Source of the DNA: Pseudocercospora fijiensis CIRAD86
Taxonomy: Eukaryota > Ascomycota > Dothideomycetes > Mycosphaerellales > Mycosphaerellaceae
Direction of reading: 5' to 3'
DNA length: 64,000 bases
Assembly: GCF_000340215.1 (NCBI RefSeq)
Contig: NW_006921533.1
Coordinates: forward strand, 6,353,424 to 6,417,423
The position numbers and the translations under genes are program-made. This document shows, piece by piece, positions 1 through 51,499 of the stretch (positions are counted from its first letter, which is position 1; each line of letters starts with the position of its first letter). The notes beneath the pieces were generated by a model. The model saw nothing but the letters and a program-made list of their open reading frames with translations, was not told the origin of the DNA and searched no databases.

Positions 1-2547
1 GTATTTAGGTCCGCTCCTTTAACGTCGACTAGGTCTATATTATAGAACAGGTATAGTATCGGAGATAGTAGGGATCCTTGCGGTATTCCCGTTCCTACGC
101 TATACTACTTAGAGCTCCCTTTAGCTATCCGGAGGGTCGTTTTTCTATCGACTAGGTAGCTTCAGAGCTACCCTACTATCTCTACCGGTAGACGCCGCTT
201 TTAAAGGTTGTATAGTAGCCGCCGATAGCTTATATTATCGAAGGCCCTAGAGACGTCGAGAAAGAGGGCGCTAACGATCTTATTCTAATTCTAACTAGCG
301 TAGATCGTTTCTATTACTAGGTAGAGGGCGTGCTCCGTAGAACTCGCTTTTCTCCCTCCGTAGTAGGTATCTAGTAGAAGGCCGTAGTATTCTACTACGT
401 ACGATATTCGCCTAGTAAGGACTATATCTATTATCTTACTAATCGTATTAAGTAGCGCGATTAGTCGGTACGATTTAGATTCGCGGTATATAGATTTCCC
501 TAGCTTTCGAAGTACTACCGTTATTAATTCCTTAAAGGAGGCTAGGTAGTACTATAGGTCGAGGGCTAAGTTATACGTTATAGCGAGTATTAGCGCTAGC
601 AGGTCTATTGCGGTCCTTATTGCCCTATTCGGGATGTCGTCTAGGCCTAGTACTTTATCTAGGCTAGTGCTTCGAATAGCCTCCTTTACTTTATGCTCTA
701 TAATCGGCGGTATAACTACTAGTAGTCTATATTTAGCGTTATCGATATTAGTTTCGTCCGCTAGCGGGGGTTCTAGGAAGAAGACAGATTGTAGCAGGTC
801 GGCCTTATCGTCCGCTAACTTATATTCCTTCCCTAAACCGTCTACGAGTGTTAGTATAAAGGTAGGCGTCTATACGTCCTTATTCTTCGTCTACCGTCGA
901 AGTGCCTAAAGATCCTTTATTATTCGGACTTATAAAACCCTTTCTCTATATTCTATCCTATTCGAGAGTAAGATCGCCTTATACCTAGCCCGCTTAGCTT
1001 ACTAGTAGGCTATTAGGTCTTCTACTGCTCCCGAGGCGAGCTATCGCTGTTTAGCTCTCTTTGCGTTAGCTATTACCTCTTAATATTCTTCGCTAAACCT
1101 AGGTCGAGACCTCGGGCTAAGTCGAAGCAGTAGTGTCGTTTCGGCAAGTGCCTAATTAATAGCTTAGGCGATTAATACCGTAAGATCGTTAAGGTCTCCC
1201 TAGTATCGGACCTAGTATAGGCTCGGTAAGAGTTCCTTAAGTCTTTCGATATACTTCGCTTCGTCTATCTTGCGGTAGTATCGTTTCTCTACCTAGGGCG
1301 CCCTCGGGATAGTATACTTAACTAGTATAGCGACTAGGAGGTAGTCGGAGTGCTTATCGAGTAGAGACTAGGTCTAGTATTCGATAATTTACTCCTATAT
1401 TCTCTCTATGCCCTATACTAAGTCGATAGTAGTTCCCTATTGCCCTATCGAGTCCGGTAGCCGTATAATCGTTCCTAGTTCTAGATATAGTTCTAGTCTA
1501 AACTGGGAGGCTATTTTAAACTATACTATATTCGATATAGCGTATCTACCGCCGACTGCTCGGTCGGCCTATTTCTCGTAATAGAGATTAAAATTACCGA
1601 TTACGATCTAGTTATTCGCCTTAGTTGCTTCTAGCGCGCGAATAAGTATAGGTAGTATACTCTTCTCCGGGAGCCCTTAGAAGGTTTTATTATAAGGCGC
1701 TTTCGGTAGCGGGTTGTATATATTATAGATAGTAATAGGAGTGCTATCTTATAGGCGAATAGTAAGCGAGGAGTTATACCTCCTATAATCCTAGAGCTCT
1801 AACTTCTCCTTCGGGATTCGGCGGGAGATAAGCTAGTAGATCTTCGGCTTCCTTGCCTCCGGTATTACCGTATAGTACCAATCCTTTAGCGGGTTATGTA
1901 CTATTCTAGTAAGTAGATTAAGCTACGGTTCCTAGAAGGCGATAATATCGTACTATAGTACGTTCTTATCTCGTAGGAATTCCGCTATAGTACCGTATAA
2001 CTTCCTTATATTATACTATATAATGTTTAGGTATTCCGGATCGTTACTTATTATAGGTATTAACGTCGGATGTGCTCTTTGCTCGCTAACGCCTTGCCCG
2101 TAGCTTATAGCCTAGGTCGTTTATTCGCGAGTATTCGCCGGCGTCCTTACGCTTCGTACGTCCGCTTAACGTCGATACCGTAGACTAGCTTATTTCCGAG
2201 TTGTCTCCTCCTATTGCTATTAGGTCGTCGTCGGCGGGTAGTCGCCGCTATATAAGCTCTAACTCTTTATTCTCCTAGTTCTCTTTGTCTGCCTCTTTAT
2301 TTTAGGGTTTATCGAACGCGAGTTTTCTAGTAACGGCCTTCGGGGTTTTACCGAATCTAGCGTTCGCGTCCTTGTCTACTAGCACTCTACAGGTAGTGTT
2401 TACGTCTACGCTCTTGCTAGACTTGTAGTATAGGCTACCCGGGAGTAAGCCTACCTTTCTCTTAGTTGTCTTCTTCTTTTTCTATACTAGCGTAAATCCT
2501 TCTAGTTCTTGCTCCGTCTATAGATTAGTAGGCGCCCCTAGAGGTAG
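1..2547 (-). mobile_element. Tad1-like LINE, ORF2 part (endonuclease and reverse transcriptase), RIP-mutated
   Basis: Read on the minus strand, positions 105 to 1 give a reverse-transcriptase block with the core GIPQGSLLSPILYLFY, followed by an acidic stretch typical of Tad1-clade fungal LINEs. Near 2035-1865 the same strand reads NIRKLYGT...FLRDKNVL then YDIIAF and EP, the start of an AP-endonuclease domain. Interrupting TAG/TAA codons sit where Gln or Trp is expected (for example AFQEPW), the RIP pattern. The element continues past the left edge of the window. It is cut off from its 5' part by the hAT insertion at 2548. The family call is from motif recognition, so the clade is less sure than the LINE call. 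Confidence 0.8.
2540..2547. repeat. 8-bp target-site duplication, left of hAT copy 1
   Basis: AGAGGTAG directly before the left terminal repeat, identical to 12149-12156 after the right one. Confidence 0.9.
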
Positions 2548-2567
2548 TAGACCCCGTAGTAGTTCGG
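2548..2567. repeat. Left terminal inverted repeat of hAT copy 1
   Basis: TAGACCCCGTAGTAGTTCGG. It pairs with 12129-12148 and is the same sequence found at both ends of copy 2. The outer bases abut the AGAGGTAG target duplication. Confidence 0.9.
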
Positions 2568-2979
2568 GTTGGTTTGGTTTGGTTTGCTAAGCCGAAACTC
2601 TAGTTTAGTTTAGGTTGGTTTGCTAAGCAACTATATAAGTAGCTAGTTCGAACTATATAATTTATCGGTTTTTAAGAAGTGTACGAATATATACGTAGCT
2701 TCAAGCAAGCCCTTTATAAGACTTAGTAGTGTAGCCGGTAGCGTGGCCGGCATTTTTAGTCCTTAGTACTTATAGAATTTTCGAATCCTACTTAGGCTAC
2801 GTAGTTGTATAAAGGTACTTATATAACCTCAAATCTATAGACAATTAGCTAAGGGCACTAACTAATTAAAAGCATATATATACATATACAAGGTATTATA
2901 GTTTAGTTCGGAAACTGCACTCCTTAGGTATAAATTTTATCCTTTCGTTTACGGTTTAATTCCCTAACTGCTTAGCAGA

Positions 2980-3519
2980 ATGTCTTTATCTAGATCTAGG
3001 TAGAACTTATCGATTTCCCTAGAAGTCCTCCTCCTTAAGAAGTTTATACACTTTCCTACCGAACTATTCGATAATATTAAGTACTAGGATAGCTCCTCCC
3101 TCGGTATCGGTATAGTATATAAAAGAGCTATAAGGTAGCTCTATAGAACGTTCTACTAGTTACTCGCTATACTAAGGCCGAATACTAGTTCGTTCCTTAG
3201 AACTCTTAGTTATTTAGGAGATATAAAGGGTAGGGCAGGTAGTAACTTCGTATTGTATAAGGAGGTAGAGGCTACTATAGAAGAGGCCTTCAACCTATAG
3301 AAGATAGTAAAAGATATAGAGGCAGCTACAGGTCTAGGTACCTAGTTGAATTTTCAGTAGGTAGAGTATAAGGATATTTAGAGGGAGTATTAGGTAGAGT
3401 TGCGAAGGCAGGTGTATAATATGCTCTAGAAAATAGGGATAGTGCCTATAACTATAACTATTAGGCTCTTTAACCTTCCTTATTTTTCCCTGTTTTCTTT
3501 TTATAAAAATATAAACTAA
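2980..3519 (+). pseudogene. Unknown cargo ORF of hAT copy 1 (convergent to the others)
   Basis: An ATG at 2980 opens a 180-codon frame starting MSLSRSR and ending FSFYKNIN with TAA at 3517-3519. It is interrupted only by TAG codons at positions that would be Gln or Trp before RIP. Middle parts read SLEVLLLKKFIHFPTELFDN and GSNFVLYKEVEATIEEAFNL. The same frame exists in copy 2 on the minus strand (54248 to 53709), where the start ATG has become ATA, so it is a conserved part of the element. It runs opposite to the transposase and histone-like genes. I do not recognise the family; the charged helical look gives no firm function. Confidence 0.5.
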
Positions 3520-3702
3520 TACAAATCAACCGGAATGTCTATCTTCTTTTAGTTCTTTAAAAAACCTAGTAGCGTAGCTAGTAGCGTAGCCGGTAGCGTA
3601 GCCGGTAGCGTAGCCGGCCTTTTTACTCCTTAGTACTAACGGGATTTTAGGAGACTTCCATTCCGTACGGCTAATAAAGCATACTATACTATATACATAT
3701 GC

Positions 3703-4516
3703 TTAGAGAGTATTTAGAGCGCGGTATATAGCGCCGTATAACAGCGGCTCATTTCGTATATAGAAAAGCTTGTAGATAATACTACGAACATCCTTTCTAC
3801 TAGAATATCTATCCTACCTAGCACCGTCTCGAATATAGATATTCTAGCCTTTCAGAATCTAATCGAGTGCTTTAAAATCCTTGTCTATAATCGTTATACG
3901 CTTCGCGTAGATAGCTATAAGGTTAACCGCTAAAATAGTATTAGTATAGTCCGAAAAGAGGTAGAAGAGAAACATACATTCGAAGATACGAACTAGGTAG
4001 GCTTCTATAGCCTCTTAAAGGGCGCCTATCGCGGAGGCTTAGAAGCGAAGGTCCGTTCTATAATCCTAGGCAATTTCGCGAACAAGTCGTTAGAAAGGAG
4101 CTTTACGGATTAGGAGCTAAGAACTCTTCTAATACTGCCGAATCTTACGGAGGGCTACGGCTAAAGAAGGATTAGTAAAAAGATAGTAAGAATGCCGGCT
4201 ACGCTACCGGCTACGCTACCGGCTACGCTGCCGGCTATAAATAGGACTTACTTCCTAGGCGCTATCGACGCTTCGCACGATTGCTACTAGTAGTAGAAGC
4301 GCTAGTTATCGTCTTACGTAGAGCCTTGCCCGCCGTTGTCTTACGCGGAGCCTTACTCGCGACGCCCTTTCTAGTACCGGAGCTAGCGGTAGTAGTAGTA
4401 GCCCTCTTACGTTAATGTACTATACTCGTTCTACTATTTCCGGTCTTATTACGACCCGTAGAAGCACTAGGTCCCTTCTTGCGAGGCGTCGTAACTTAGT
4501 TAAGTAGACTCGCTAT
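3703..4516 (-). pseudogene. Histone H3-like gene B in hAT copy 1 (three exons, RIP-mutated)
   Basis: Three exons on the minus strand: 4516-4252, 4160-3978 and 3929-3703; 675 nt, 224 codons plus TAA. Exon 1 is a basic Ser/Thr/Lys tail containing VASKAPRKTTAGKALRKT, recalling H3-tail repeats. It ends ...RRQRLG (with TAG at Q). Splicing to exon 2 in phase 1 yields GTVALRKIRQY, exactly the H3 alphaN start. Exon 2 goes on with LLIRKAPF, RLIREIA, DYRTDLRF, ASAIGAL and EAYLVRIFE. Exon 3 gives VNLIAIYAKRITI and a KD motif, then a C-terminal extension of about 55 residues not seen in canonical H3. Stop codons fall almost only where H3 has Gln. Intron 1 (91 bp) holds the GCCGG repeat and TACTAAT; intron 2 (48 bp, GTATGT...TTTTAG) does not. 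The start codon is ATA, taken as an RIP-mutated ATG. Certain as an H3 fold; its former role is unknown. Confidence 0.85.
4161..4251 (-). repeat. Intron 1 of H3-like gene B with GCCGG minisatellite, copy 1
   Basis: GTAAGT donor, four CCGG cores at 12-bp spacing (4193-4239), then TACTAATCC and CTTTAG. Its phase 1 position joins GGA-A to CC, giving the GTVAL of histone H3, which confirms both the intron and the reading frame. Confidence 0.8.
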
Positions 4517-5059
4517 TATAAAAGTCGTCGAATTAAGGAAAAAAGTGCGTTACAAAGGTGTACGAAGGCGCGCGCGGAGCGAGGGTATTACGGAGGTAGT
4601 AGATATAGAGCGTAGAGGTATAGGTATCGATACGAAGGTTGAATATAGCGGTAGTATCGCGGTATCGCTAGGTAATAGAGTAAGCTTCGCGCAAGCCTAT
4701 ATTATAGTAACGTTAGAGCAAGGAAAGAAGGCAGGCACGGCTAAAAAAGGTAGGTACGGCTAAAAAAGGTAGGTACGGGAGACTTTGAAATATAGCCGGT
4801 ATATATAGCCGGTATAGTAATAGGCGAAAGCCTCCTTTTAATAAATAGCCGGCGTAATAATAGTATCTTACTATAGTATAGATATTCTTTAGTAATGCCT
4901 TTACTAGCTATAGTAATCTTATAAGTAACCTAGGCCTATTGCTAGTAAATATAAGAAATATTAGGTAGGCTATACTAAATAAGCTAGTTATTTAGCAGAA
5001 AAAGGCCTACTACCGTCTCTATATGCCGGCTACGAGTACCGGCTATCGCTCTAAATTCA

Positions 5060-5735
5060 ACTCCGCCCTATCTCGGAGGCTAAGGTACCGAGCGGAAACC
5101 CTATAGCTTATATTTACTCGGTTATCGCGGAGCGCTTGTAGGTAAGGTATTAGAAAAGAGTATAAAAAGTACGAGAAGAGTATCCTAGGATATAGGTCGT
5201 AAGTGAATAAGAGTAGTACGCCTAGTTATTTATATAGTACGTTACTCTATACGACTAAGAGCCTATATTATCTTATACTTCGCTTATAAGACCTCGACTC
5301 TACTAGTATACTATCGATCTCTTCCTCGGTCGCTAATACGCTATCTTAATTCTTCTTCGAGTTACCGGACTTAGTGCCGCAATAGTACGCATCTGTAGCT
5401 ATATAATAGCGCTACGCATTATAGAGAATTTCTCGTTAAAGTTTCTCTCTCGCAGGCTTACTGTCTGCCTCGTAGTATAGAGGATCAAAGTGCTAATACT
5501 AAAGAATCTCCTTATAGTTAGGATGCTAGGGCTCCTTAGGACCTTTATGTTTTAGGTCTAAATAGAGACGTATTATAAACGTTCTATCGCCCTTTCGCTT
5601 ACTACCCGCTAGGTCGCGATATACGAAGAAACTAATCTAAATATAGCTCGTCTCTATAATAGCCGGGTAAATATAGAGCGCTAGGTTTCTACTTCGTACC
5701 TTAGATTTAGGGACGGCGCGGAGATAAAATTAGAA
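5060..5735 (-). pseudogene. Uncertain decayed ORF between the two H3-like genes, hAT copy 1
   Basis: Between the two H3-like genes lies about 0.7 kb bounded on both sides by GCCGG-repeat tracts. In the minus frame, allowing Gln/Trp at TAG/TAA, it reads as a continuous hydrophilic protein with pieces such as FFVYRDLADSKRKGDRTF and RLYLDLKHKGPKEP. The same reading is kept in copy 2 at about 51,500-52,170 on the plus strand. No family is recognised. Because RIP scatters stops in all frames, the coding strand is not fully certain. Confidence 0.35.
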
Positions 5736-5819
5736 ATATAGCCGGTACCTATAGCCGGTAAAAGGATGCGAAAATAGGCCTCCTCCTAGGTTAATCTAAC
5801 GACTAAATACAATTTCTAA

Positions 5820-6461
5820 CTAATCCGCTATAAACCGACGCCGAATTTTAGCTAGAAGCTGTATATCTTTATTTTAAAGAGTAACCCGCTTCGTATAGAT
5901 AGTAAGGAGGTTTAAAAGCTTAAGCTCGGTTACGAGAAATGCCTCTATAGCTTCCTAAAGAGCACTAATCGCCTTAGCCGTAAATCGTATACTAGACCGA
6001 AAATCTAATGTAATTTCTCGGACGAGTCGCTAGAAGGGAGTCTTAGGGATTAAAAGCTCGGTCCCTCTTTTATTTTAGAAAAGCCGGATCTAGCGAAGGG
6101 TAATAGTACCTAGTTTAAAGCGCCGCTTCTTTATCGTCGAGTCCTACCTTGTTCCCTTTCTTTTAATAGAAAGATAACTTTTCTTCGCAATAGTCTTCGT
6201 CCGCCTACTCTTTTTAGCCTTCTCCTATCTACCTATAGCCTTCTTATTTTTCGGTACTGTTTTCCGAGGAACCCCCTTCCTTCGTATATACTACGGAGAG
6301 CCTTACTCTTCCGATATCTCGTTCTCGCTATAGTCTCCTTATACTTAGCTTGCTTTACCCTTACCCTTTAGCCTCTAAAGATATTTATCTATACGTTTAG
6401 GCGACGAGGGTATATCGGTAGGACCTAGAAAATTAATAAGCATATAATCGTAAGGAGACAT
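5820..6461 (-). pseudogene. Histone H3-like gene A in hAT copy 1 (intronless, long basic tail, RIP-mutated)
   Basis: A 642-bp frame (213 codons plus stop) starts at the ATG at 6461 (MSPYDYMLINFLG) and ends with TAG at 5822-5820. The first ~110 residues are a Lys/Arg/Ser-rich tail. The core follows: KKRRFKLGTITLR, TELLIPKTPF, RLVREIILDF, RFTAKAISAF, EATEAFLV, NLLTIYTKRGTL, NKDI and LLAKIRR. These line up in order with the H3 core from PGTVALREIRR to KDIQLARRIRG with no gap, including the H3-length loop 1 (CENP-A loops are usually longer). Internal stops sit at expected Gln positions. The tail is longer than the ~40 residues of canonical H3. It lies between the transposase and gene B on the same strand. 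Strong as an H3-fold gene; whether it was an H3 or a CENP-A mimic cannot be told. Confidence 0.88.
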
Positions 6462-6779
6462 TAATGCTTCTTATCTTCTAGAACAAATAGTCTTCTATTA
6501 AACCGCCTTATTAGGTTATCGTTAGATTCGAATAAAGGATAGTAGCTTAAGGAAGGGGAGGTAGCCGGCTTAGGAAGGCCCGAAGAGCCGAATCCTTAAG
6601 GTATATTTGTCTTTAAGAATATAGGGAAAGGGAAGAAGGAGAGGAAGAGCGAATAGAGAATTAGAAATAGTCCGTAGGTAAGCGGGGTCGGTTGCTATAG
6701 CAACTAGTCTGTTTAGGTCCTAGGAATTCGAAATATATTTCGGATATATGCCGGCTATATACGCCGGCTATATTACCTT

Positions 6780-9700
6780 ATACGTAAACGCTTCGTCTCC
6801 TTAAAGCTGCTCTAAGCCTATATACGTTTCCGCTTCTCGACCCGGTATCGCCTTCTACCTCCGCCCTTCTCCTCTTCGTTATCGCTAATTAGGGTTTCGC
6901 TTAGACTAAATTTCGTATTCTCTTCGCGCTCCTAGGTTTCTTCGATCTTAAGGTTTTCTAATTCCTCGATTAACTCCTTTAGTATAATCTTTAGTAACCT
7001 ACCTTAGCGATTCTAGTAGAGGAGATAGTATCGGAATACTATAATAGATTCGAAGGTAGTAGGCGAGTATATTCGATTAAAGCGGCCCTAGTAACGAGCG
7101 ATACTAAAAGACCTCTTATAGCCTATGCCTACGCTCGGGATAGCGAAGACGTCCCGAGCGACCGACGCTATCGTTAGAAACTTAGGCTCTAACCGCTACT
7201 ATATAGCGAGAATATCGTCTCCGAATTCGTCTAGAAGACTAGTAAGATCTAGAGATTATTAGCCCTCTTTCCGAGCCTACGGGTTTGTACTTACTCGCGC
7301 GCCGATAGAGATTGAACTCTTCTTTATTTACTTTAGTAGTTGCTTCCTCTTCTGCCTCTACTTTCTACCTACGAAACAGGTATAATGTCGGAGCCTTCTA
7401 AACCTTCTTTTTCTTTATAGGAGCTGCATTTAGACTAGTTTCTTTCCGACGCTCGTAGAATATCTTTTCTAGAATAGTCTAGTAATACTTCGGCTATACT
7501 TCGTCCGCCTTCTATTCTAGCCTCTGCTAGTATATATCCTTTTCTACCGGGTTAAGCAAGTACGTAACGCTATAGATATCCCCGAACGAGTTAAAGGTAG
7601 TACTGTAATATTTATGTAACTTAGTATAGGAGGTATCTATAGCTTTCGTTATAGCTACTTTCTAGGGAACGCTCTTCTTAGCTAGCTTAGCTACGGTTTC
7701 CTCGAGCTCGTTAAAGAGCTAGTTATAGTACGTAAAGACAAGGTAGATCGTCGGTCCTCGGGTTCTTCTAATCGTAGTAGTAACCTTCGCGTAATACTTA
7801 CTAATATCGACGAGATACTCTGCTTAGCGCTATTCGGCGGCGGTAAGGCCGAGCTACTTAATACCCTCGGAACTCTAATAGATCTCGAGAGCGGTACGTA
7901 AAGTATATCCCCTCGTAACTATATAGAAAGTCGAATCGAACCGGGTCTTAACGTCTTAGGTAAAACGGAGTAGGCGCTAAGGAGGCCGCTTTTGCTATCG
8001 CTTATTCTATACGATATTCTAAGTATCGGTTTTAGGGCGCTCGATTAGGTTCTTTTAAATAGCCTCGAATCGGTTATATCTCTATAAGCTCGAGTTCGTA
8101 TATATTACTAGACGACGAAGCTAGAGAAAAAGAGTTAGAACTATACTAGGTTGCCGGCTATAGGTACCGGCTACGGATAAAAGTTATACCTTATATAAAA
8201 CGAGAGCGAGGCTCTCTACCTTATCCCGTCTTATTGCTATAATAAGTTTCTCGACTTTCGACTTTGCTTTATCCTTATCTAGGATCTTCTATTAGTCGTC
8301 GTTTAATAATGCAATTTTAAGCGTCTTAAAGAGGGCTCGGATCGCGATTTGAACTATATAAGCGAGATAGGGAAACTTCTATAGGGATATAACTAGCAAC
8401 GACGTCGGCTCCGATTCGTTAGGGCTAGGGCTATTAATAGGCTCCTCTTTATTATTATTATCGTACGTATTGTCGTACGTATTCGGAATCGTAGCGAGCT
8501 TAACATTCGGAAGATTAAGCTAGATTATAGACCTTATAATCTCCTCTACGCACTCGACCCTATCGATACAATTAGTAATTTTAAAGACATATGCGAGTAA
8601 ATTGTATATATAACGCTTTATACAATGTTCGATTATTACTAGCGTTATCCGTAGTAATCGAGATTAGTTTCGTTGTTACGCTAACCCTATCTATTGCCGT
8701 ATAGACAAGCTTCGCTATATCCTTACTAGTATAGGAACCTAGAATTTTAGGGAATCCGATTATAAGTTCCTAGAGTTTCTAATCCGAATTAATAAAGTAT
8801 AGTATAATCGAGAGGAAGGAGGCTCTTATAGTCCGGCTTAACTAGCTATCGATAGTAATAGCTACTCGGCGAGTATTACGGAGGATCTCCCGAATGTCGT
8901 CTAACGTAGCCTCTTTGTTCTTTTCGAATATAATACGCTAGGTTGTCGCGCCGAGAAATAGGGGAGGGTAGTTTATAAGATATAGGTATGTCTTCTATAT
9001 AGACTCCCTTTCGTAGAAGTCTTTCGGAAGACCGTTTGTAGCTAGTATTTCGTTTGCTAGTTGCTTAAAGTCTTCGGGGGAGAAATCGGTAGCCTTTAAT
9101 CCTAGAGCTTCCTTAAGCGTAGCCTATAATAATTAGCTAGACCTCTACGGTTGATTTAAGTAGCCGGAATCTATAGCCGGAATCTATAGCCGGCAGCTGT
9201 AGCCGGTAGCTGTAGCCGGTAGCTATAGCCGGCATTTTAGAAGACGTACCTCTTTCTAGAACGCTGTATCTATATTAACTCTCCTTTCTCCTTAAGATTC
9301 CCGATACCGTTTAGAATAGAGATAGTTCGTAGGTAATAAGTTCCTATCCCCTAGTTTCGGGTATTTTAAGATTGAACCGTAGAAGTTATAGACAATTACT
9401 AGTTAACCTTTAAGTCGAGAAGTCGTATAACGGTGCAATGCCCCCTCTATAAAGAACTTCTAGAATGTATCCGTTCGCTCCTTACTCCCCTATCGCATCG
9501 AGTACTTCCGGAGTTTATACTCCTTCGAACGTAAGTATAAAGGGAACTATATCTTATAGACCTATTAATTAAACTGCTCTATATACTCGGGTTTCTAAAG
9601 ATACGCCTAGCTAGCCTTTTCGAAGATTTCCGGGTTAATACTCGATATTCTTATATCTCCGAACAACCTTCTGCTTAGACTCCGTAAAGGTAAGGACTAG

Positions 9701-9850
9701 GTAGTAGTACCCTATAATGAATTCCTACTACTAGGATTCGGAGAGGATAAATCTAGCCCTAATTGTCGTCTAGGACTCGATAGGCTCGAAGGTAAGTATA
9801 CAACCTCCTCTCGACGTTGTCGCAATCTCGCTCGTATACTAGACTGTTTC
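6780..9850 (-). pseudogene. hAT transposase gene, copy 1 (RIP-mutated)
   Basis: Read on the minus strand, the gene shows the ordered blocks of a hAT (Ac-like) transposase. There is an N-terminal region, then LPEDFYERESI, NTRRVAIAIDS, SRTIRASFLSIILYFI, LIIGFPKILGSYTSKDIAKL and ISITTDNTSNN, the RNase-H-like core with its DN motif. Then come TIYLVFTYYN with LFNELE and a C-terminal dimerisation region with SVARDVLAIPSVGIG and KRSFSIARYQGRF. Stops fall at expected Trp or Gln codons. An intron at 9249-9124 (126 bp) carries the GCCGG minisatellite; the matching intron of copy 2 is one 13-bp unit longer. Exon limits at both ends are approximate. It would have mobilised the element; it is dead now. 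Confidence 0.85.
9124..9249 (-). repeat. Intron of the hAT transposase with GCCGG minisatellite (six CCGG units)
   Basis: Donor GTACGT follows GAAAGAG, and the acceptor TAG precedes GCTACGCTTAAGG. The middle (9161-9233) is a 13-bp tandem repeat of the type GCCGGCTATAGCT with six CCGG cores, followed by a CTAATTA branch-like site. Copy 2 has seven cores in the same intron, so the repeat number varies between copies. Confidence 0.7.
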
Positions 9851-10029
9851 GACTATCGTCTCGTTGTTACCCTTCCTAGTGTAGCGCCTAGTGTATATAC
9901 AATGTCGGTCGGCATATTTTAAGGTTTCGTACGGTAAGGTAAGGACTTAGGAGTAGTAGATGTATACTAGTAGCTATAGGGAAACATCCTTTCTTTTATA
10001 GCATCGTATCGTTAGGAATAGCTAGGTAG

Positions 10030-10155
10030 TAAATAGCTAGCTACCTTTTTTTTTGTTTCCTAGCTACCTAACTACTAGATTTTTTTTCCTAGCTACCCTA
10101 GCTAGCCTAACTACTAGAATTTCTTTCCTAGCTACCCTAACTACCTGAATTTTGC
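10030..10155. repeat. TAGCTAGG/CTACC tandem repeat in hAT copy 1
   Basis: Three to four imperfect units of about 35 bp of the type CTAGCTACCCTAACTACTAG with runs of T. The same array is at 47,085-47,205 in copy 2, so it is an intrinsic spacer between the basic ORF and the transposase. Confidence 0.6.
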
Positions 10156-10199
10156 CTTCTATACGGCGGCTCTCTCCTACTAACGGAACCGAGCTACTA

Positions 10200-11550
10200 T
10201 ACCTAACGAATCTAAGCTCGTTTTCAGTCTTAATCTATCCTCTTTCGGTATAAGACACTCGATAAGCAAATGCTTAGGCCGAGTCTAACTACGAAACCTA
10301 AGACTAACTAATAGCTCTATTAACTAATCCTAATCCTCGAACTCCTTCCGCTTTTTAGTAAAGACCTTAAAGAGCGCTCGAGCTTCTTCGGGTACCTACG
10401 GAGTAGTCGAGATAAAGCCGTATCGCTAAAATAGGTAATCCTTCGGAGGCTTATATAGAGATTTAGAGAATTCTAACGCTAACCTATCCTACTAGTAGCT
10501 TAGATTCCGGATACAAGCCCTCTCTACCTTAGTAAAGATTTTATATAGTAGTAGCACTCTACCTTCGAGAAACGCTTTCTATTTAACTGTTAGTATCTGC
10601 CGGCTACGAACGCCGGCTATATATGCCGAGTATAGAATAATTACCTATACCCCTTCCTCCTATAGTAATACTTCTACCGTCCCTAGATACCTAGCCCCGA
10701 TCGTATTAATCGCAAGCTACTTTGCCTTTATAGACGCAAAGGCTTCGCTCTAATACTAATAAAGAAACTTCTACTCTATATCGAGGATATAAAGACGACT
10801 AGTCTTGATTCCAATCCTTACTAGCTTTTCGTAGTAGCTTTAACTATGATTTTCTAGATTAATAGGACTTATGCCTTAGCCCTTTACTAGTATCTCGTCT
10901 CTTTAACTATACTCGATCTACTCCTAGCGCTTATCGTCTATAGCGTTAGGCCCTAAGACTGTACCTGTTACTAGATCGACGTATAGTATCTCCTCGCTTT
11001 TTTCAGTTCCTTTATTCGTAGTATTAAGCTCTATCGCGGTATCCTAAACTCTAGCATTGTTGTTCTCGGCTATCTAAACATCTCCGTTACTATCGGTCGT
11101 ATCGATAGAGGTAGCGGCTATAGGTCTAAATGCTATTAGTTAACGTGTTAAAGAAAAATATGCCGGCTATAGCTACCGGCTACGGCTGCCGGCTATAGCT
11201 GCTAGCTACGGCCGCTAGCTAGATTAACTTACGCTGCTAGAACTTTACGCTCGAAAACTAGCCGCAATTCTTTCCTCCTCTTAGCCTTCTCTTAGGTTGT
11301 CTTCTTATTCTAACCTTTACTTTTTTCTATAGGCGCTAGCTATCGATAGAATACCTTATTCCGCGCCTTTCTTCTCTTATCCTTAGCTCTTTTATCCTTA
11401 TCTATCTTGTCCTTTCTCTCGTAGTCTCGTACGGAATTCTTCTTCGTAGAGTACTCCTCTTTAGTCTTACGCTTTTTAGTTAGACGCTTAGGCAAAACAA
11501 ACTCGCGGTCTTTAGTTCTATCTTCTATTTAGCGCGCGGCGCGCTTCTCT
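10200..11550 (-). pseudogene. Basic unknown cargo protein of hAT copy 1 (multi-exon, RIP-mutated)
   Basis: On the minus strand this starts with a very basic segment including KDREFVLPKRLTKKRKTKEE and runs of Lys/Arg/Asp, typical of a nuclear protein. It is followed by an intron carrying the GCCGG tract near 11,160-11,220, then a segment with DLVTGTVLGPNAIDD, a second GCCGG intron near 10,600, and a last part with KPPKDYLF, TRPKHLLIECLIPKEDRLRL. It is the first minus-strand gene from the right terminus, ahead of the transposase. The empty sites of both LTR elements of copy 2 lie in it: 11,3xx for the first and about 11,040 for the second. No family is recognised; it may be an accessory transposition protein. 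Confidence 0.45.
11161..11220. repeat. GCCGGCTA minisatellite in an intron of the basic cargo gene, copy 1
   Basis: Units of 12-13 bp with GCCGGCTA(T/C)(A/G)GCT. In the matching intron of copy 2 (38857-38963) the array is followed by TTAACTAATAG and an ATTTAG acceptor. Confidence 0.7.
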
Positions 11551-11702
11551 CTTACTATTGTAAGGGAAAGGGGCGGGGGCGTAGCGTATAGTAGTTATTG
11601 TCGGTATAGGTATAGAGGAAGAAGTTAAAAGTGTAAGAATGTCGCGAAGCCCTAATTGTTGCCGCCTACGTAACGTTATATAGGTAAGCTTTCGCAACTA
11701 TA

Positions 11703-12012
11703 GCAACTACGCCCCGGTAATAGCAACTACGCCCTAGTAACGGCAACTACGCCCTAGCAACGGCAACTACGCCCTAGCAACGGTAATAAAGCGTAGTAAA
11801 TACAACCTAGTAACTATTATAGCCGGCAATCGTAGCCGGTAGTCGAATAAGAGTATCCTTGTAGCAAAACTACGCCCTAGTAACGGCAACTACGCCCTAG
11901 TAATAGCAACTACGCCCTAGCAACGGCAAAAGAGCGTAGTAAATATAACAGAGTTACTATTATAGCCGGCAATCGTAGCCGGCAGTCGAATAAGAGTGTC
12001 CTTATAGTAAAA
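11703..12012. repeat. Subterminal repeats of hAT copy 1
   Basis: A 20-bp unit CAACTACGCCCTAGTAACGG is tandemly repeated about four times at 11,703-11,782 and about three times at 11,868-11,927. Each array is followed by a copy of a longer unit ending GCCGGCAATCGTAGCCGG...GTCGAATAAGAGT. Such subterminal arrays are where hAT transposases usually bind; here that is inference. Copy 2 has them at 31,355-31,665. Confidence 0.75.
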
Positions 12013-12128
12013 CCAATACAGTCTCTAGTTTAAACTAGGAATCTATATAGTTCGAAAAAACTAAACCGGAACTAGGGAGCTAGTTCGCCGCTAAGAAACT
12101 AAACTATATACGTTTAGTAGTTCGGAAA

Positions 12129-12148
12129 CCGAACTACTGCGGGGTCTA
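12129..12148. repeat. Right terminal inverted repeat of hAT copy 1
   Basis: CCGAACTACTGCGGGGTCTA, the inverted match of 2548-2567 with one transition. Just inside it, TTCGGAAACCGAA at 12121-12133 can form a small hairpin that is also kept at the matching end of copy 2. Confidence 0.9.
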
Positions 12149-12156
12149 AGAGGTAG
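12149..12156. repeat. 8-bp target-site duplication, right of hAT copy 1
   Basis: AGAGGTAG directly after the right terminal repeat. An 8-bp duplication is diagnostic of hAT-type integration. Confidence 0.9.
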
Positions 12157-31213: not shown

Positions 31214-31354
31214 TAGACCCCGTAGTAGTTCGGTTTCCGAACTACTAAACGTATATAGTTTGGTTTCTTAGCGGCGAACTAGCTCTCTAGTTCCGGTTTA
31301 GTTTTTTCGAACTATATAGATTCCTAGTTTAAACTAGAGACTGTATTAGTTTTA

Positions 31355-31665
31355 CTATAAGGACACTCTTATTCGACTGCCGGCTACGATTGCCGGCTAT
31401 AATAGTAACTCTATTACATTTACTACGCTCTTTTGCCGTTACTAGGGCGTAGTTGCCGTTACTAGGCCGTAGTTTTGCTATAAGGATACTCTTATTCGAC
31501 TGCCGGCTACGATTGCCGGCTATAATAGTTACTAGGTTGTATTTACTACGCTTTATTACCGTTACTAGGGCGTGGTTGCTATTACTAGGGCGTAGTTGCC
31601 GTTACTAGGGCGTAGTTGCTATTGCCGGGGCGTAGTTACTGTAGTTGCGAAAGCTTACCTATATA
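31355..31665. repeat. Subterminal repeats of hAT copy 2
   Basis: Tandem units GGCGTAGTTGCCGTTACTA in two arrays separated by duplicated CTCTTATTCGACTGCCGGCT blocks; the inverted counterpart of 11,703-12,012. Confidence 0.75.
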
Positions 31666-31968
31666 ACGTTACGTAGGCGGCAACAATTAGGGCTTCGCGA
31701 TATTCTTATACTTTCAACTTCTTCCTCTATATCTATACCGACAATAACTACTATACGCTACGCCCCCGCCCCTTTCCCTTATAATAGTAAGAGAGAAGCG
31801 CGCCGCGCGCTAAACAGAAGATAGAACTAAAGACCGCGAGTTTGTTTTACCTAAGCGTCTAACTAAAAAGCGTAAGACTAAAGAGGAGTACTCTACGAAG
31901 AAGAATTCCGTACGAGACCGCGAGAGAAAGGACAAGATAGATAAGGATAAAAGAGCTAAGGATAAGAG

Positions 31969-32687
31969 TGTTATAGTAGCTGCCTAGAAAGCACCGACAA
32001 GTCCTACAAGCTAGCCGCTATACTATAAAGTAATATCGGATTTGAGTTGCCTTAGTAGTAGGGGCCCCTAGCGAAGCAGGTCGCCTAGTTAGCCTAGGTC
32101 GCCTAGTACGCCTAGTACGCCTAGTACGCCTAGTACGCCTAGTACGCCTAATACGCCTAGTACGCCTAGTACGCCTAGGTCGCTTACTTAGCCGTATAAC
32201 GTAACATCTTAGGGACTCCCGCGGAGGCCGTATATAGCAGAACAATACGTTACACATTAATATACAAACGACGGGACTGCACTAAACTATGCGCACGTAT
32301 ATACGGACGACAGTAAGCGAGACATATAGAGTCGTAGGACAGATCCGAGTAGTAGGAAGGAACCGGAAGGTAGGGAAGAGCTAGGAGAAACATATTTACT
32401 TAAGAGCGGTTAAACGAGTTCGTATACGCGCGCTACGCTAGTTAGCTAGGAGACAAAGGCGCTACGAGATAGCGGACAAGCAGGATATACGTGCTTACGC
32501 TTACGCGTCGGACGCGCTAGACGGCCGTAGGGCGGAATACTAAGGAAGGGGCTCTCCCTCTAAGGTACCCTTCTTCCTTTCTTCGTAGTTCGTCTTATAT
32601 AGATAGTAGCTATATTGATTTAGTGCTCCCTTTAGTTTAGTTCGAAGTTTCGTACGCATTCTTACTGCTTAGCTACTAACCCTTATA
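31969..32687 (+). repeat. 5' LTR of gypsy element 1
   Basis: 719 bp, the same length as the 3' LTR. It contains a 9-bp minisatellite (CCTAGTACG)n at about 32,090-32,185. Confidence 0.9.
32095..32185. repeat. 9-bp minisatellite inside the gypsy-1 LTR
   Basis: About ten units of CCTAGTACG with a few variants. On the minus strand it translates as repeated RRT and so creates a spurious ORF. The 3' LTR has the same array. Confidence 0.85.
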
Positions 32688-32739
32688 TTACGAACTGCTT
32701 TAAAAAACGCCTCTATTAAGATAGATACGCCCGACGAAT

Positions 32740-35700
32740 AGATTTAAAATATAAGACCTAACGAAGTACCCGATTTTTTAAGCTTAGTATAGAATAAGAT
32801 CCCCGCTACGCGCGAATAGCTAGATTACGCCTACGCTACCGACCCGGAACTGCTCGTTAACCTGCTTAAGGCTTATAAAGATGCTACTCGTTTCCTCTCG
32901 GTCTCCCGTACTAGCCTTAGTACGGCTCTTAGCGACGCGAATGCTTCTATCGCGGAAAAAGAAGACGAGGTAGGCCGCCTCTAGTCGCAGCTCGCCTCTA
33001 CTCGCTTAGGCGCCGCGGTACCCGCTTCTTACCTATTTATACCTACTTCGAATAAGAGTAAGAAGCTAAGCGACCCCGAACGCTTTACCGATAAGCGTAA
33101 AGTGTACGAAGAATTTAAGATATAGGTTAAGATCCGCTTTCTCGCTAACGCCGACTACTATCCGACTAAAGCTTTAAAGACCGGATTTATATTTTTTCTG
33201 CTCGGTAGCTCCGCCCTTAATTCCTACCGCAGCCTCTTAGAAAATGTAGAAACAACTATAACGGCTACTATCTAGAAGGCCCTCGACGCTAGTTTCGGCG
33301 ACCCCGACCGTAAGTAAACTACGCGCCTAAACTTAGACAAACTTAAGCAAGCAAACAAGACCTACTAAGAGTACTATACCGCCTTCTAATACGAGATTAG
33401 GTACGCCGAATACCCCCCGGACGTCGCTAAATAGATCTTAGTACGCGGCCTTAGCGAAGAAATGATGCTATAAGTCCGCGATAAGGATACGGAGAATCTA
33501 AACATTACCGAACTGTACGCCTTACTTACGCGTATCGATAATACGACTCGAAACTTCGCGAAAATTATCGCTAACCGCGGAGGCGCCCGTACGAATGCCG
33601 GTCGCTTTACGTCGCCGTTCGCTACGCTACCGTCGAAGTTATAGACAGCTTAGACGCCGGCTTTAGTACTAGCTCCGGCTATAGCCCTAATACCGCTAGG
33701 CGCCTAGCCTGCCGCCGATCCGATAGATTTAAGCGCTGCCTCGCTTAGCGCCCGTCTACGCGCGCCCCTAGTAAATAGTAAGCTTTTAGAAGAAGAGAAG
33801 TAGCGTCGCCGTACGGTAGGAGAATGTATCTACTACGGAGTAAAAGGACATATTGCTCGCCTTTGCCCGTCTCTCGTCGGCCGGCTAAATATACTAACGA
33901 TATAGCGAGTCGCCGCCGCGAATGTTATAACTCTAGATACGCCTTTACCGGCTAGCGCTGCTCCGAGCGGCTAGGGAAAAGCTTAAACCTTGTATATAGT
34001 CGCTTATAAGGTTTATTCGTTCTAAAACTAAGAGTATCTGCTACTACCTTCCCTTTCTCTAGCTCGGCTATAGAGAAAGAGTTAGTCTACTAGCCTTTCG
34101 TAGTAGAAACGTTAATAGGAAATTAAAAGAAATTATTAAAAACTATAGCTCTTATTAACAACGGCGCAACCGGCTACTCGTTTATAGATTACGACTATAC
34201 GAGAGAGCTCGGCTTAACGTTCTAAGACCTTACGTACGCTCGGGAGTTAGAAATGTTTAACGGTACGACCGCGGCCGCCGGTAAGGTAACCTAGATCTAC
34301 TACTTATCTATTACTATCGGCCTGTATACCGAATATATTATGTTTTTCCTTACGAAACTCCCGAAGACTTACCCTGTTATTCTTAGTCTTCCTTAGCTTA
34401 AAAAGTATAACCCAGTTATCGACTAGGCCTCCGAATCTCTATCCTTTACGAGTAAGCATTACGCTAAGTACTACTTTAACGAATCTAGTTCTACCTCCGA
34501 TACTCCCCGAGATCGTACCGTATTCGCTATTAGCGCGGCTACCTTCTCGCGTCTTACCCGCGATAAACGCACTTAGATCTTCGCTATAATAATATAGGAT
34601 ATCGAGAAGGCTATCCGAAAGTTCGACGAAGAACTAACGGATTTAAGAACGAAACTACCGAAGGAGTATTAGCACCGACTCTACTAGTTTTCGAAGAAGA
34701 ACGCCGATATTCTACTACCGCACCGGCTAGGTATCGACTATAAAATCGAGCTAATTAACGGTAAGCCGCCGCCGTACGGCCCTCTCTACTCGATGTCTCG
34801 AGATAAGCTCCTCGTACTAAAGAAATACCTCGAAGACAACCTATAAAAGGGCTTTATCCGCCCTAGTTCCTCCGAAGTAGCCGTACTAGTTATATTTGCC
34901 CGGAAACCCGGCGGAGGTCTCCGTTTCTACGTAGACTACCGGGGCCTTAACGCGTTAACGAAAAAGAACCGCTACCTAATCCCTCTCGTAAACGAAACGC
35001 TCGAACGCCTTTCGAAGGCTCGCTAGTTTACTAAGCTCGACGTAATCGCCGCCTTTAACGCGATCCGTATTGCTAAGGGAGACGAATAGTTAATAGCCTT
35101 CCGAACCCGTTACGGCCTTTTTGAATACCTAGTCTTACCGTTCGGGCTCTATAACGGACCTAGCACGTTCTAATTATATATTAACGATACGCTTAAAGAA
35201 TTCCTAGACGCCTTCGTCTCGGCGTATATAGACGATATCCTAATTTATAGTAAAACGAAAGCGGAACACTACGAACACATCGAAAAGGTACTTAAGAAAC
35301 TCGTAGAAGCTAGACTATATATCGATATCGATAAGTGCGAATTCTATAAGCAAGAGATGAAATTCCTCGGCCTTATTATCTCTTTAGAAGGTATTCGAAT
35401 AGATCCCGGTAAGATCGAAGCCGTTCTAAACTAGGGAGTGCTACGAAACGTAAAAGAAGTCTAGGGCTTCCTCGGTTTTGCTAACTTCTACCGGAGATTT
35501 ATACGGAATTTTAGCGGAATCGCCCGTCTACTTATAGCACTTACGCGGAAAGACGTCAAATTTGAATAGTTACCGGCCTATTAAGAAGCCTTCGACTAGT
35601 TACGGCAAAGTTTTACGACCGTACCGATCCTATAGTACTTCGACTTCGATAAAGAAACGCGCCTAGAAACCGATGCTTCCGACGGTATAACTAGCGCCGT

Positions 35701-37700
35701 TCTCCTTTAACGAACGACCCCGGAAGATACGTAGCTGCCCGTAGCCTATCTCTCTAAGAAGATATCCTCCGCGGAATGCAATTACGATATCTACGATAAG
35801 GAGCTCCTCGCAATTGTTAAGGCTTTCGAAGAATAGCGCCCGGAACTCGAAGGTTCTAAGTTACCGATCTAGGTTAGCTCGGATTATAAGAACCTTATCT
35901 ACTTTCTTAAGAGCAAAATCCTTAGCTATAGGTAGGTACGCTAGAGTAAGTTTCTTTCCCGGTTTAACTTCGTTATTTAGTATACGCCCGGTAAAGCAAA
36001 CTTATAGGCCGACGTACTTATAAGGCGCAACAGAGACTCGCCTTTAGATCGAGGTCCGTAGCGTAAAGAATAGTCTATCCTTAAGGAGTATAACCTTAGC
36101 TAGGAACTATACGAGCTCCTCGGAGACGACTTTACCGGCTTAGAGCCTCTCGTAGTATCCTTTATACTAATAGCCGCTCCTGCCTTTCTTAGAGACGACG
36201 ATAGCTCGGACGACGAAGATACGAGTTTAGAAAGCTTAGATAGCGACTAGGAAAGCGAAGAGGAAGTATAGGACCTCCTCGAACCTACCTAGCTCGAATA
36301 GTAGCTTACGATAGCATACGCCGAAGACGCTTTTACTAAAGGTCTAATTCAAGCTTTATAGAACGAGGAGCGGTTATACGAGAATGTTTCTCTCTCGGAG
36401 TACGAGCTCCGTAGAACTCTACCGCGAGCACCCTATATAATATTTAGAAATGCCCTCTACGTCCCGGATTTCGAAGATTTACGTAACTAGATTATACGTT
36501 CCGCTTATAACCCTCTCAGAATAGTATATCCCGGTCGAGCTAAGATATTATCTTAGCTCCGGAAGTAGTACTACTAGCCTAATCTATACCGGGATATCGA
36601 CCGATTCGTTAAGAACTACGTAGTATACCGTAGAGCGAAAGCAGATACGCGTAAGCCGCAAGGGCTACTGAAATCTCTTAAAGTCCCTCTACGACTATAG
36701 CAATATATTTCAATAGATTTCATTATAGGCCTACCGAAAGGATCCGACTTTAACGGCCTCTAGTTTTAAAATATGCTAGTCGTAGTTTGCCGCCTTACGA
36801 AACGTAAGAAGGTATTGAATACCCGCAGCCTAACTGCAAAGAATACGGCTTAGGTCTTCTACCGGGACGTGTAGAAAGATATAGGCCTACCTGAATTAAT
36901 TGTATCTAATCGCGGCCCGAATTTCGTTGCCCGTTTTTAGAAGCGCCTCTACGAACGATTGAAAATTCAAGCGCGCCTTTTAACGGCTTACTACCCGCAG
37001 ACTGACGGGCAAACCGAACGCGCTAACGCGTAGATCGAGTAAATTATTAGGTGCTTCTATAATTACTACTAAAACGACTAGCTTAGATTAACGCCTTCTA
37101 TTAAATTTGCTATTAACAATTAGGAGTCGGCTACAACTTAGACTACGCCGTTCTACGCCTCTACTAGATTTTACCCTCGAACCGGTATAGAACCGATAGA
37201 GATCGAACTAGAGCCCCCGGCAAACGATCCGGAAAGAGACGCCGATGCCTTCGCTCTTTAAATAGCCTAGACTTACTAAGAGCTCTAGGACGAGATAAGG
37301 TATGCCTAAGAAGTATACGAGCACTACGCTAATTAGCGTAGACGCGCCGCGCTAGATTACTAGGTCGGAGATTACGTCTACCTCGACTTACGATATATTA
37401 GAACTAACCGACCTTCGAAAAAGCTCGACTAGAAAAATCTAGGACCCTTCCGAATTATAAAGAAAATCGGTATATACGTATACGAACTAGATCTCCTAGA
37501 AAATCTTAACATTTACCCGGTTAAACACGTTATTAACCTAAGAACCGCCGGAGAAATCGCGGACCCTAAAGACATCCCGCCGATACCGGAAGCTACCGAG
37601 GCTACCGATTAGGCCGAAGACGAGCCGGAATCTGCCTTAGGTATAGTACGGGCGATTATCGGATAGAGCTTTAGTAACACAAATTTCGGAAATCTCAACC
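32740..37700 (+). pseudogene. gag-pol of gypsy element 1 (RIP-mutated)
   Basis: gag at about 32,740-33,800 (DPERFTDKRKVYEEFK, RYAEYPPDVAK). Reverse transcriptase at about 34,780-35,270 with [40 protein letters not shown] and the intact catalytic YIDD in AYIDDILIYSKT. RNase H near 35,640 (ETDASDG). Integrase at about 36,640-37,500 with ISIDFIIGLPKGSDFNG, YYPQTDGQTERANA and the C-terminal GPFRIIKKIG module. Frequent TAG codons replace Trp and Gln. No working protein remains. Confidence 0.85.
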
Positions 37701-37992
37701 CTCCCGGGCCGTAGGGAGAGGTATAATAGAAGGGGTACTTAGACGAGGATATAACCTAGGAACCTCTACGCTATATTATCTTCGCCCGCGAAGCAATCGA
37801 GGAATTCCTACGAGACTATACCGACTATACGATAATAGAAGGAGCTGTCCTAGAACATTTTCTCTAAGAAGCGTACGAATAGAATTTAGATTAAGGTCTC
37901 TAACCCGAACTAGGACAAGAACACTAGCACCTATTATATACGGACCTCCTTTAGCGTCGTAGGAACTCCGCGTAGAACGAGGGGGGGGCTAC

Positions 37993-38711
37993 TGTTATAG
38001 TAGCTGCCTAGAAAGCACCGATAAGTCCTATAAGCTAGCCGCTATACTATAAAGTAATGTCGGATTTGAGTTGCCTTAGTAGTAGGGGCCCCTAGCGAAG
38101 TAGGTCGCCTAGTTAGCCTAGGTCGCCTAGTACGCCTAGTACGCCTAGTACGCCTAGTACGCCTAGTACGCCTAATACGCCTAGTACGCTTAGTACGCCT
38201 AGGTCGCCTACTTAGCCGTATAACGTAATATCTTAGGGACTCCCGCGGAGGCCGTATATAGCAGAACAATACGTTACATATCAATATACGAATAACGGGA
38301 CTATACCAAACTACGCGTACGTATATACGGACGATAGTAAGCGAGATATATAGAGTCGTAGGACAGATCCGAGTAGTAGGAAGGAACCGGAAGGTAGGGA
38401 AGAGCTAGGAGAAACATGTTTGCTTAAGAGCGGTTAAACGAGTTTATATACGCGCGCTACGCTAGTTAGCTAGGAGACAAAGGCGCTACGAGATAGCGGA
38501 CAAGCAGGACATACGTGCTTACGCTTACGCGTCGGACGCGCTAGACGGCCGTAAGGCGGAATACTAAGGAAGGGGCTCTCCCTCTAAGGCACCCTTCTTC
38601 CTTTCTTCGTAGTTCGTCTTATATAGATAGCAGCTATATTGATTTAGTGCTCCCTTTAGTTCAGTTCGAAGTTTCGTGCGCATTCTTACTGCTTAGCTAC
38701 TAACCCTTACA
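37993..38711 (+). repeat. 3' LTR of gypsy element 1
   Basis: 719 bp; near-identical to 31969-32687 with scattered C/T and G/A differences. It has the same 9-bp array at about 38,103-38,205. A G-run (GGGGGGGG) lies directly upstream at 37,981, at the polypurine-tract position. Confidence 0.9.
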
Positions 38712-38856
38712 AGAGAAGAAAGGCGCGGAATAAGGCATTCTATCGATAGCTAGCGCCTATAGAAAAAAGTGAAGGTTAGAATAAGAAGACAATCTAAGAG
38801 AAGGCTAAGAGAAGAAAAGAATTGCGGCTAGTTTTCGAGCGTAAAGTTCTAGTAGC

Positions 38857-38963
38857 GTAAGTCAATCTAGCTAGCGGCCGTAGCTAGCAGCTATAGCCGG
38901 TAGCCGTAGCCGGCAGCTATAGCCGGTATATTTTTCTTTAACACGTTAACTAATAGCATTTAG
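38857..38963 (+). repeat. Intron with GCCGG minisatellite in the basic cargo gene, copy 2
   Basis: GTAAGTCAATC donor; array of AGCCGGTAGCCGTAGCCGGC type at 38,871-38,929; branch-like TTAACTAAT; acceptor ATTTAG. Confidence 0.65.
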
Positions 38964-39061
38964 ACCTATAGCCGCTACCTCTATCGATACGACCGATAGT
39001 AACGGAGATGTTTAGATAGCCGAGAACAATAATACTAGAGTTTAGGATGCCGCGACAGAGC

Positions 39062-39258
39062 TGTTAGAACTAAAGAGGTTACATGTAATTAGTATATAAC
39101 CGGGCTCGAGTAAAGCTAGGGTCTTAATACCTTAGGCAGGGCTTAGCGCTTAGTAATAGGCTAACTTGCCTACCTTCCTCCCTCTCCTCCTAGCTCCTTA
39201 TCGAATACTACCTATACCTACTACTACCCTATCTACCTACTAATATACCCTTCTTATA
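39062..39258 (+). repeat. 5' LTR of gypsy element 2
   Basis: 197 bp, matched by 45996-46192 with transition differences only at a glance. Confidence 0.88.
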
Positions 39259-39515
39259 TAGTATTTAATCCACCCTTTAAGGGTAGTAGCTAGATAGTCC
39301 TTATTTTAAGCTTTTAGCGGTATAGCTACGAACAAGACTAATCTAACTATATTGCGCCCGAAGAACAGGACCTATACGTACTATCCTATCGAAACAACTG
39401 TACCAATTATTAAGCAAGGCCTTCTATATAGCCTATTATACTAAGTCAAGCATACTAAGCCAATATCTACTAATTCCGCTATATCCGTATCTTAGGGGCT
39501 AATAATATATTATTA

Positions 39516-45995: not shown

Positions 45996-46192
45996 TATTA
46001 GGACTAAAGAGGTTATACGTAATTAGTATATAACCGGGCTCGAGTAAAGCTAGGGTCTTAATGCCTTAGGCAGGGCTTAGCGCTTAGCAATAGGCTAACT
46101 TGCCTGCCTTCCTCCCTCTCCTCCTAGCTCCTTATCGAATACTACCTATACCTACTACCACTCTATCTACCTGCTAATATACCCTTCTTATA
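45996..46192 (+). repeat. 3' LTR of gypsy element 2
   Basis: 197 bp, same length as the 5' LTR; TG at the start has become TA. Confidence 0.88.
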
Positions 46193-51419: not shown

Positions 51420-51499
51420 TTGGAAATTGTATTTAGTCGTTAGATTAACCTAGGAGGAGGCCTATTTTCGCATCCTTTTACCGGCTATAGGTACTGGCT

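What the first reader, a model, noticed from the sequence alone, without database searches (positions are those of the whole stretch)
2548..12148. A hAT DNA transposon carrying two distinct histone H3-fold genes
Inside the hAT element, next to the transposase and on its strand, are two frames with the histone H3 core. Gene B gives, across a phase-1 intron, GTVALRKIRQY, LLIRKAPF, RLIREIA, DYRTDLRF, EAYLVRIFE and NLIAIYAKRITI. Gene A gives LGTITLR, LLIPKTPF, RLVREI, EATEAFLV, IYTKRGTL, NKDI. Stops fall at positions where H3 has Gln, as RIP would cause. Both genes recur in the second copy with identical exon lengths, so they are stable parts of the element and not a chance insertion near one copy. 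I know of no hAT element with histone cargo. Possible roles (inference): altering chromatin at the element, evading heterochromatin, or centromere/kinetochore mimicry.
Basis: partly seen in the sequence, partly recalled or inferred. Interest (0 to 1): 0.97.

Follow-up and report, generated by a model that had tools for sequence, protein, structure and literature searches.

The report
Dead hAT transposon carrying two histones
A mutated jumping gene in what appears to be a banana-pathogen genome carries two histone H3 genes; this was published in 2019, but one of the two seems to keep introns and both are shared by two branches of the element, hinting that they were old and perhaps working cargo.

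Summary
Window 2548-12148 is a 9601-bp element with TAGACCCCG inverted ends and a perfect 8-bp duplication. It carries two RIP-mutated H3 genes above the Pfam cut-off.

It is not new. The genome fits Pseudocercospora fijiensis. Dhillon et al. 2019 (PMC6710886) described this hAT family there, with one or two H3-like copies per element (784 in total). Manning et al. 2013 reported an H3-carrying hAT in Pyrenophora.

My evidence departs from the 2019 paper in three ways.
(1) Gene B looks intron-bearing. Intron 1 (91 nt) is in the same phase as, and one codon from, a host H3 intron. The published '16-aa insertion' fits a 48-nt intron. This argues against a pure retrocopy for B.
(2) A second subfamily (75-86% identical where alignable) carries both genes in the same order, so the pair predates the split.
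(3) RIP-proof transversions between subfamilies are rarer at nonsynonymous sites (A+B ratio 0.36, p 0.002). The signal comes mainly from gene B. Gene A alone is not significant, and neither is the transposase used as positive control, so constraint is suggested, not shown.

All 148 scored element H3 matches contain stops. What the histones did is untested.

The parts
2548..12148 (.). complete element, 9601 bp, with TAGACCCCG/CGGGGTCTA inverted ends
2540..2547 (.). 8-bp target-site duplication agaggtag, left
12149..12156 (.). 8-bp target-site duplication agaggtag, right
4252..4375 (-). gene B exon 1, the part alignable by eye to the H3 tail; the true start is not determined
4161..4251 (-). gene B intron 1, 91 nt, GTAAGT...TACTAAT...TAG, phase 1
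3978..4160 (-). gene B exon 2, H3 core, 183 nt
3930..3977 (-). gene B intron 2, 48 nt, GTATGT...TACTAAT...TAG; fits the published 16-aa insertion
3844..3929 (-). gene B exon 3, end of the H3 core, to a TAG
5820..6218 (-). gene A, H3-like part, intronless, ends at a TAG
6219..6461 (-). possible N-terminal extension of gene A, open in the same frame with ATG at 6461 (apart from stops read as X); its coding status is not supported by codon-position counts
8620..9135 (-). transposase-like exon (by eye; no Pfam match over cut-off)
7310..8699 (-). middle transposase frame (by eye; no database match)
6950..7258 (-). hAT dimerisation exon, sub-threshold Dimer_Tnp_hAT match at 7097-7213
31214..54680 (-). 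second copy of the element, split by later insertions, TSD ACTCTTCG at 31206-31213 and 54681-54688

Best explanation
[quoted passage not shown] Beside its transposase the active ancestor carried two paralogous H3-variant genes. Both were in the element before its two subfamilies split and moved with it (shown by orthology). Gene B has intron-like stretches, one of them next to a host H3 intron, so it probably derives from chromosomal H3 DNA rather than from a spliced transcript; gene A is intronless. While the element was active the proteins were probably made and at least partly kept by selection (suggested only). The most likely role (inference) is that the variants entered nucleosomes and made the element's chromatin easier to transcribe or harder to silence. 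RIP later put stops into every scored copy.
For: Ends, TSD and two Histone matches. Genome size and largest scaffold as published, and the intact H3 on contig 6 as published for scaffold 6. Intron 1 changes the reading frame, has GTAAGT/TACTAAT/TAG, and lies one codon from host H3 intron 2 in the same phase. Exon 2 is 183 nt in 21 of 22 copies, intron 2 48 nt in 21 of 22, while intron 1 varies between 79 and 103 nt. Subfamily 2 keeps both genes and both introns. The exon-2 tree pairs A with A' (99/99) and B with B' (91/78). Transversions between subfamilies: third codon positions 27/249 against 23/498 at the first two (p 0.0028); nonsynonymous/synonymous ratio 0.36 for A+B (p 0.0019) and 0.30 for B (p 0.0023). 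Gene A's H3 part changes less than the intergenic stretch 6470-6740 (15/372 against 24/265, p 0.011).
Against: Gene A alone: nonsynonymous/synonymous transversion ratio 0.52 (p 0.12), and 0.60-0.73 (p 0.30-0.51) with another alignment. Position 2 against four-fold sites is not significant for A or for A+B (p 0.58, 0.21). The transposase, as positive control, is not significant either (0.45-0.76), so the test is weak. Gene B rests on one B' copy, its exon 2 shows no codon-position pattern (6, 6, 7 of 60), and it is faster than its own introns (p 0.0008). Against host H3 gene A shows no codon-position pattern (22, 14, 22 of 90). Intron 2 is in frame without a stop in the window copy, and its donor reads GT in only 6 of 22 copies, AT in 15 and GC in 1. 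No RNA evidence.
Confidence: 0.6

Rival explanations
1. Published reading: the transposon passively captured a spliced H3 transcript (retrocopy); the extra copies never served the element and were pseudogenised by RIP; the 16-residue difference between the two copies is a mutation.
For: Gene A is intronless. The 2019 authors found exon-exon junctions without intron sequence in deRIPped copies. Gene A alone gives no significant sign of constraint.
Against: Gene B's 91-nt stretch is frame-changing, has splice signals and lies one codon from a host intron. The 48-nt stretch has donor, branch and acceptor signals, and its removal restores H3 length. Gene order and introns are kept in a diverged subfamily. 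B transversions favour synonymous sites.
Confidence: 0.3
2. Centromere or CENP-A mimicry: the element's genes derive from, or act as, CENP-A.
For: Gene B shares IRQY with the host CENP-A, and both genes lack the PH of the H3 'KKPHRY' motif (by eye).
Against: Loop 1 is H3-like in both genes and not the longer CENP-A form; the host CENP-A intron lies elsewhere. The exon-2 tree joins the four element genes with each other and not with CENP-A, though CENP-A is a long branch.
Confidence: 0.05
3. Private capture or misreading: the histone frames are chance, or sit next to one copy only.
For: None found.
Against: Histone E-values of 7e-21 and 5e-16; presence in 17 and 19 of 20 fetched copies and in subfamily 2.
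Confidence: 0.01

Closest known systems
Histone H3-carrying hAT family of Pseudocercospora fijiensis (Dhillon et al. 2019, PMC6710886)
   Same: Apparently the same family in the same genome: ~9.5-kb element, 8-bp TSD, one or two H3-like copies differing by 16 residues, CA-to-TA RIP, original H3 on scaffold 6.
   Different: The paper infers a retrocopy without introns, one repeat family and passive cargo. I find intron-like stretches in gene B, a second subfamily with both genes, and a sub-threshold dimerisation domain that the paper could not identify.
H3L-carrying hAT of Pyrenophora tritici-repentis (Manning et al. 2013, PMC3538342)
   Same: hAT element with transposase, further open frame and an H3-like gene between the inverted repeats (passages).
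   Different: 5.6 kb and 2.3 kb, one H3L, 26 mostly intact copies; the 2019 paper reports no similarity between the two hAT elements. I could not compare sequences.
Canonical fungal histone H3 (host gene, L001)
   Same: Same fold; gene B intron 1 lies one codon from host H3 intron 2 in the same phase.
   Different: Gene B exon 2 is 42/60 identical and gene A core 46/90, X counted as different; gene A has two extra codons.

Membership tests
hAT superfamily | 8-bp target-site duplication | tested here: met
   Both window copies 8/8. Of 20 fetched copies, 12 hold the right end: 8 identical, 2 with one mismatch, 2 cut by the stretch end (6/6, 4/4); 8 of 20 show no right end.
hAT superfamily | terminal inverted repeats | tested here: met
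   TAGACCCCG / CGGGGTCTA at the ends of both window copies.
hAT superfamily | transposase with hAT dimerisation domain | tested here: inconclusive
   Dimer_Tnp_hAT E 0.027, 14.7 bits against a cut-off of 21.4; the genome search with PF05699 did not list this element; the 2019 paper reports DUF659.
Histone H3 | histone-fold profile match, closest to H3 | tested here: met
   Pfam Histone over cut-off; best PDB sequences are H3.
Histone H3 | incorporation into nucleosomes | not testable with these tools
   All scored element copies contain stops.
CENP-A | CENP-A-type longer loop 1 | tested here: not met
   By eye against host L026.
H3 retrocopy | no introns | tested here: not met
   Gene B has two intron-like stretches; gene A does meet it.
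Published P. fijiensis H3-hAT family | same genome, length, TSD and H3 pair | tested here: met

The most novel reading that the evidence does not exclude
Fungal hAT transposons of this kind carried their own evolving, spliced histone H3 variants as working cargo, kept by selection across element subfamilies and used to shape chromatin at the transposon, rather than passively captured host H3. The mostly intact Pyrenophora H3L elements would be a second case.
Probability: 0.3. Interest if true: 0.75.

Novelty: already known. Interest (0 to 1): 0.38.

Why it matters
The element is in print as passive capture followed by mutational death. If the H3 genes instead belonged to the element, kept introns and were under selection before RIP, then DNA transposons have encoded core histone variants as functional cargo, and the question whether transposons rewrite their own chromatin could be tested with the intact Pyrenophora copies.

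Tried and rejected
Chance or private capture: rejected. CENP-A mimic: disfavoured. Constraint on gene A judged against host H3: not supported. Coding status of gene A's N-terminal extension: not supported by counts. Protein search with gene A: 8 candidates, none at E 0.001; with gene B: 14 H3 proteins of 16 candidates; with the transposase frame: 2447 candidates, none. Pfam of other frames: nothing over cut-off. PF05699 in the genome: 47 matches, none at this element's dimerisation exon. The 3' flank of gene A (46/161 fixed transversions) was left out of the flank test because its alignment is doubtful; with it included the p value is 7e-9. The first gene A length count (399 nt in 15 of 22, shorter in 7) was dropped because upstream indels shift the offset; presence was recounted. 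One search stopped with an error before its last controls, which were redone.

Literature: text searches were made; besides the 2013 and 2019 papers the listings showed nothing on this topic. Seen of PMC6710886: abstract, start of the text, Results, Methods, part 1 of 2 of the Discussion. Seen of PMC3538342 and PMC4981457: passages only.
Full report
What is there. Window 2548-12148 is bounded by TAGACCCCG and CGGGGTCTA and by the 8-bp duplication agaggtag. A second copy, 31214-54680 on the other strand, has its own duplication ACTCTTCG and is split by later insertions. With stops as X, Pfam Histone matches two places on the minus strand above its cut-off, and the best PDB sequences for both are H3. 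Over the host-aligned cores 15 of 18 stops sit where the host H3 has Gln.

Where it is. The genome has 73.9 Mb in 30 contigs, the first of 11.88 Mb, with an intact H3 exon on contig 6. The P. fijiensis genome paper gives 74 Mb and a largest scaffold of 11.8 Mb (passages), and the 2019 paper places the original H3 on scaffold 6. The species is therefore inferred with high confidence, but no tool names it.

It is already in print. Dhillon et al. 2019 describe this family: 784 H3-like sequences, full-length elements of 9.5-9.9 kb, an 8-bp TSD, CA-to-TA RIP bias, one or two H3-like copies per element differing by a 16-residue insertion, no introns found, and a captured transcript or retrocopy inferred. 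My genome searches had 772 histone candidates and 781 gene-B-type candidates, 150 scored in each. Manning et al. 2013 describe an H3-like gene in a hAT of Pyrenophora (passages). Five text searches found no further paper on the topic.

Gene B looks intron-bearing. Exon 1, whose lysine-rich end resembles the H3 tail by eye, ends at 4252, and exon 2 starts at 4160 in another frame. Taking out 91 nt with GTAAGT, TACTAAT and TAG joins them in phase 1 at the codon for Thr45. Host H3 intron 2 is in phase 1 of Gly44, one codon away. Exon 2 ends at 3978; a 48-nt stretch GTATGT...TACTAAT...TAG follows, whose removal restores the H3 length. It is the 16-residue gap in the PDB alignments and fits the published insertion. 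Over 22 copies (20 fetched plus two in the window), exon 2 is 183 nt in 21, intron 2 48 nt in 21, and intron 1 91 nt in 18, 79 in 2, 92 in 1 and 103 in 1. Donor 1 reads GTAAGT in 20, and branch and acceptor 1 are unchanged in 21. Donor 2 begins with GT in 6, AT in 15 and GC in 1. The AT forms are what RIP of TG to TA would give. The GC copy (L035) has eight private Cs or Gs in the gene B region, several of them clustered in intron 2, unexplained. Against the intron reading of the 48 nt: it is in frame and has no stop in the window copy. Subfamily 2 has both stretches, 103 and 48 nt. There is no RNA evidence.

Two subfamilies. Of the first 30 histone loci, 28 are element copies; 3 of these (L003, L010, L016) match the element at only about 75-86% in the alignable stretches and carry gene A'. 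L052, next to L003, carries gene B'. The search with B' lists 11 further places of 82-92% protein identity, on contigs 11, 17, 20 and 23. A 60-column tree of exon 2 pairs A with A' (99/99) and B with B' (91/78) and joins all four at 82/82, below the tool's starred level. So both genes were in the element before the subfamilies split; a single origin of A and B is likely but not shown.

Was the cargo constrained? RIP makes only transitions, so I counted transversions between subfamilies. (a) By codon position in single copies: A 5, 2, 10 of 126 (p 0.033), B 7, 9, 17 of 123 (p 0.032), A+B 12, 11, 27 of 249 (p 0.0028); but gene B exon 2 alone gives 6, 6, 7 of 60, and position 2 against four-fold sites is not significant (A p 0.58, A+B p 0.21). 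(b) Synonymous against nonsynonymous transversions, stop codons skipped: A ratio 0.52 (p 0.12), B 0.30 (p 0.0023; exon 2 0.45, p 0.086; exon 3 0.13, p 0.0018), A+B 0.36 (p 0.0019). With the multiple alignment, A gives 0.60-0.73 (p 0.30-0.51), its two shifted frames 0.95-3.4, the transposase dimerisation exon 0.68-0.76 and the middle frame 0.45-0.49, none significant. The positive control therefore fails to reach significance and the test is weak. (c) Conservation against flanks, sites fixed in six window-type copies (window copy plus 5 of the 20 fetched) and three subfamily-2 copies: gene A H3 part 15/372, dimerisation exon 11/305, middle transposase frame 25/310, intergenic 6470-6740 24/265; gene A against intergenic p 0.011, its positions 1+2 p 0.0012. 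(d) Against host H3: B exon 2 7, 4, 13 of 60 (p 0.036), A 22, 14, 22 of 90 (p 0.5). Gene B exon 2 is faster than its own introns (12/120 at positions 1+2 against 1/138, p 0.0008), which I cannot explain. Together: constraint inside the element is suggested, better for B by codon logic and for A by comparison with flanks, and not established.

Transposase. Frames upstream of the histones on the same strand look like a hAT transposase by eye, but the only Pfam support is a sub-threshold Dimer_Tnp_hAT match (E 0.027), a domain the 2019 paper could not identify.

How it most likely worked. Inferred: an autonomous hAT carried two H3 variants that were translated while it was active, entered nucleosomes and affected how the element's chromatin was read or silenced. 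Shown: anatomy, copy structure, intron-like signals, orthology across subfamilies. Suggested: constraint. Not shown: expression, splicing, nucleosome entry, any effect.

Verdict. What remains of interest is the possible correction of the retrocopy and passive-cargo reading.

Noticed in passing
window 2732-11977, e.g. 4194-4231 and 9161-9227: A GC-rich TAGCCGG-type minisatellite recurs in 15 clusters across the element, one of them inside gene B intron 1, whose length varies by 12 nt between some copies.
   Followed up: partly
window 31969-38710 and 39063-46192: The second copy is interrupted by two insertions bounded by direct repeats of about 300 and 195 nt, like LTR elements.
   Followed up: no
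L035, gene B intron 2 region: One copy has eight private C/G states in the gene B region, several clustered in intron 2, unlike the other 21 copies.
   Followed up: no
window 2979-3515, + strand: A long frame with few stops near the left end; no Pfam match.
   Followed up: no
G000 contigs 11, 12, 17, 20, 23: The best gene B' (subfamily 2) matches all lie on these contigs; 17, 20 and 23 are small (0.83, 0.59, 0.33 Mb), and the genome paper suspects small scaffolds of being dispensable chromosomes.
   Followed up: no
L026 (G000:C5:606604): Intact CENP-A-like host gene.
   Followed up: no
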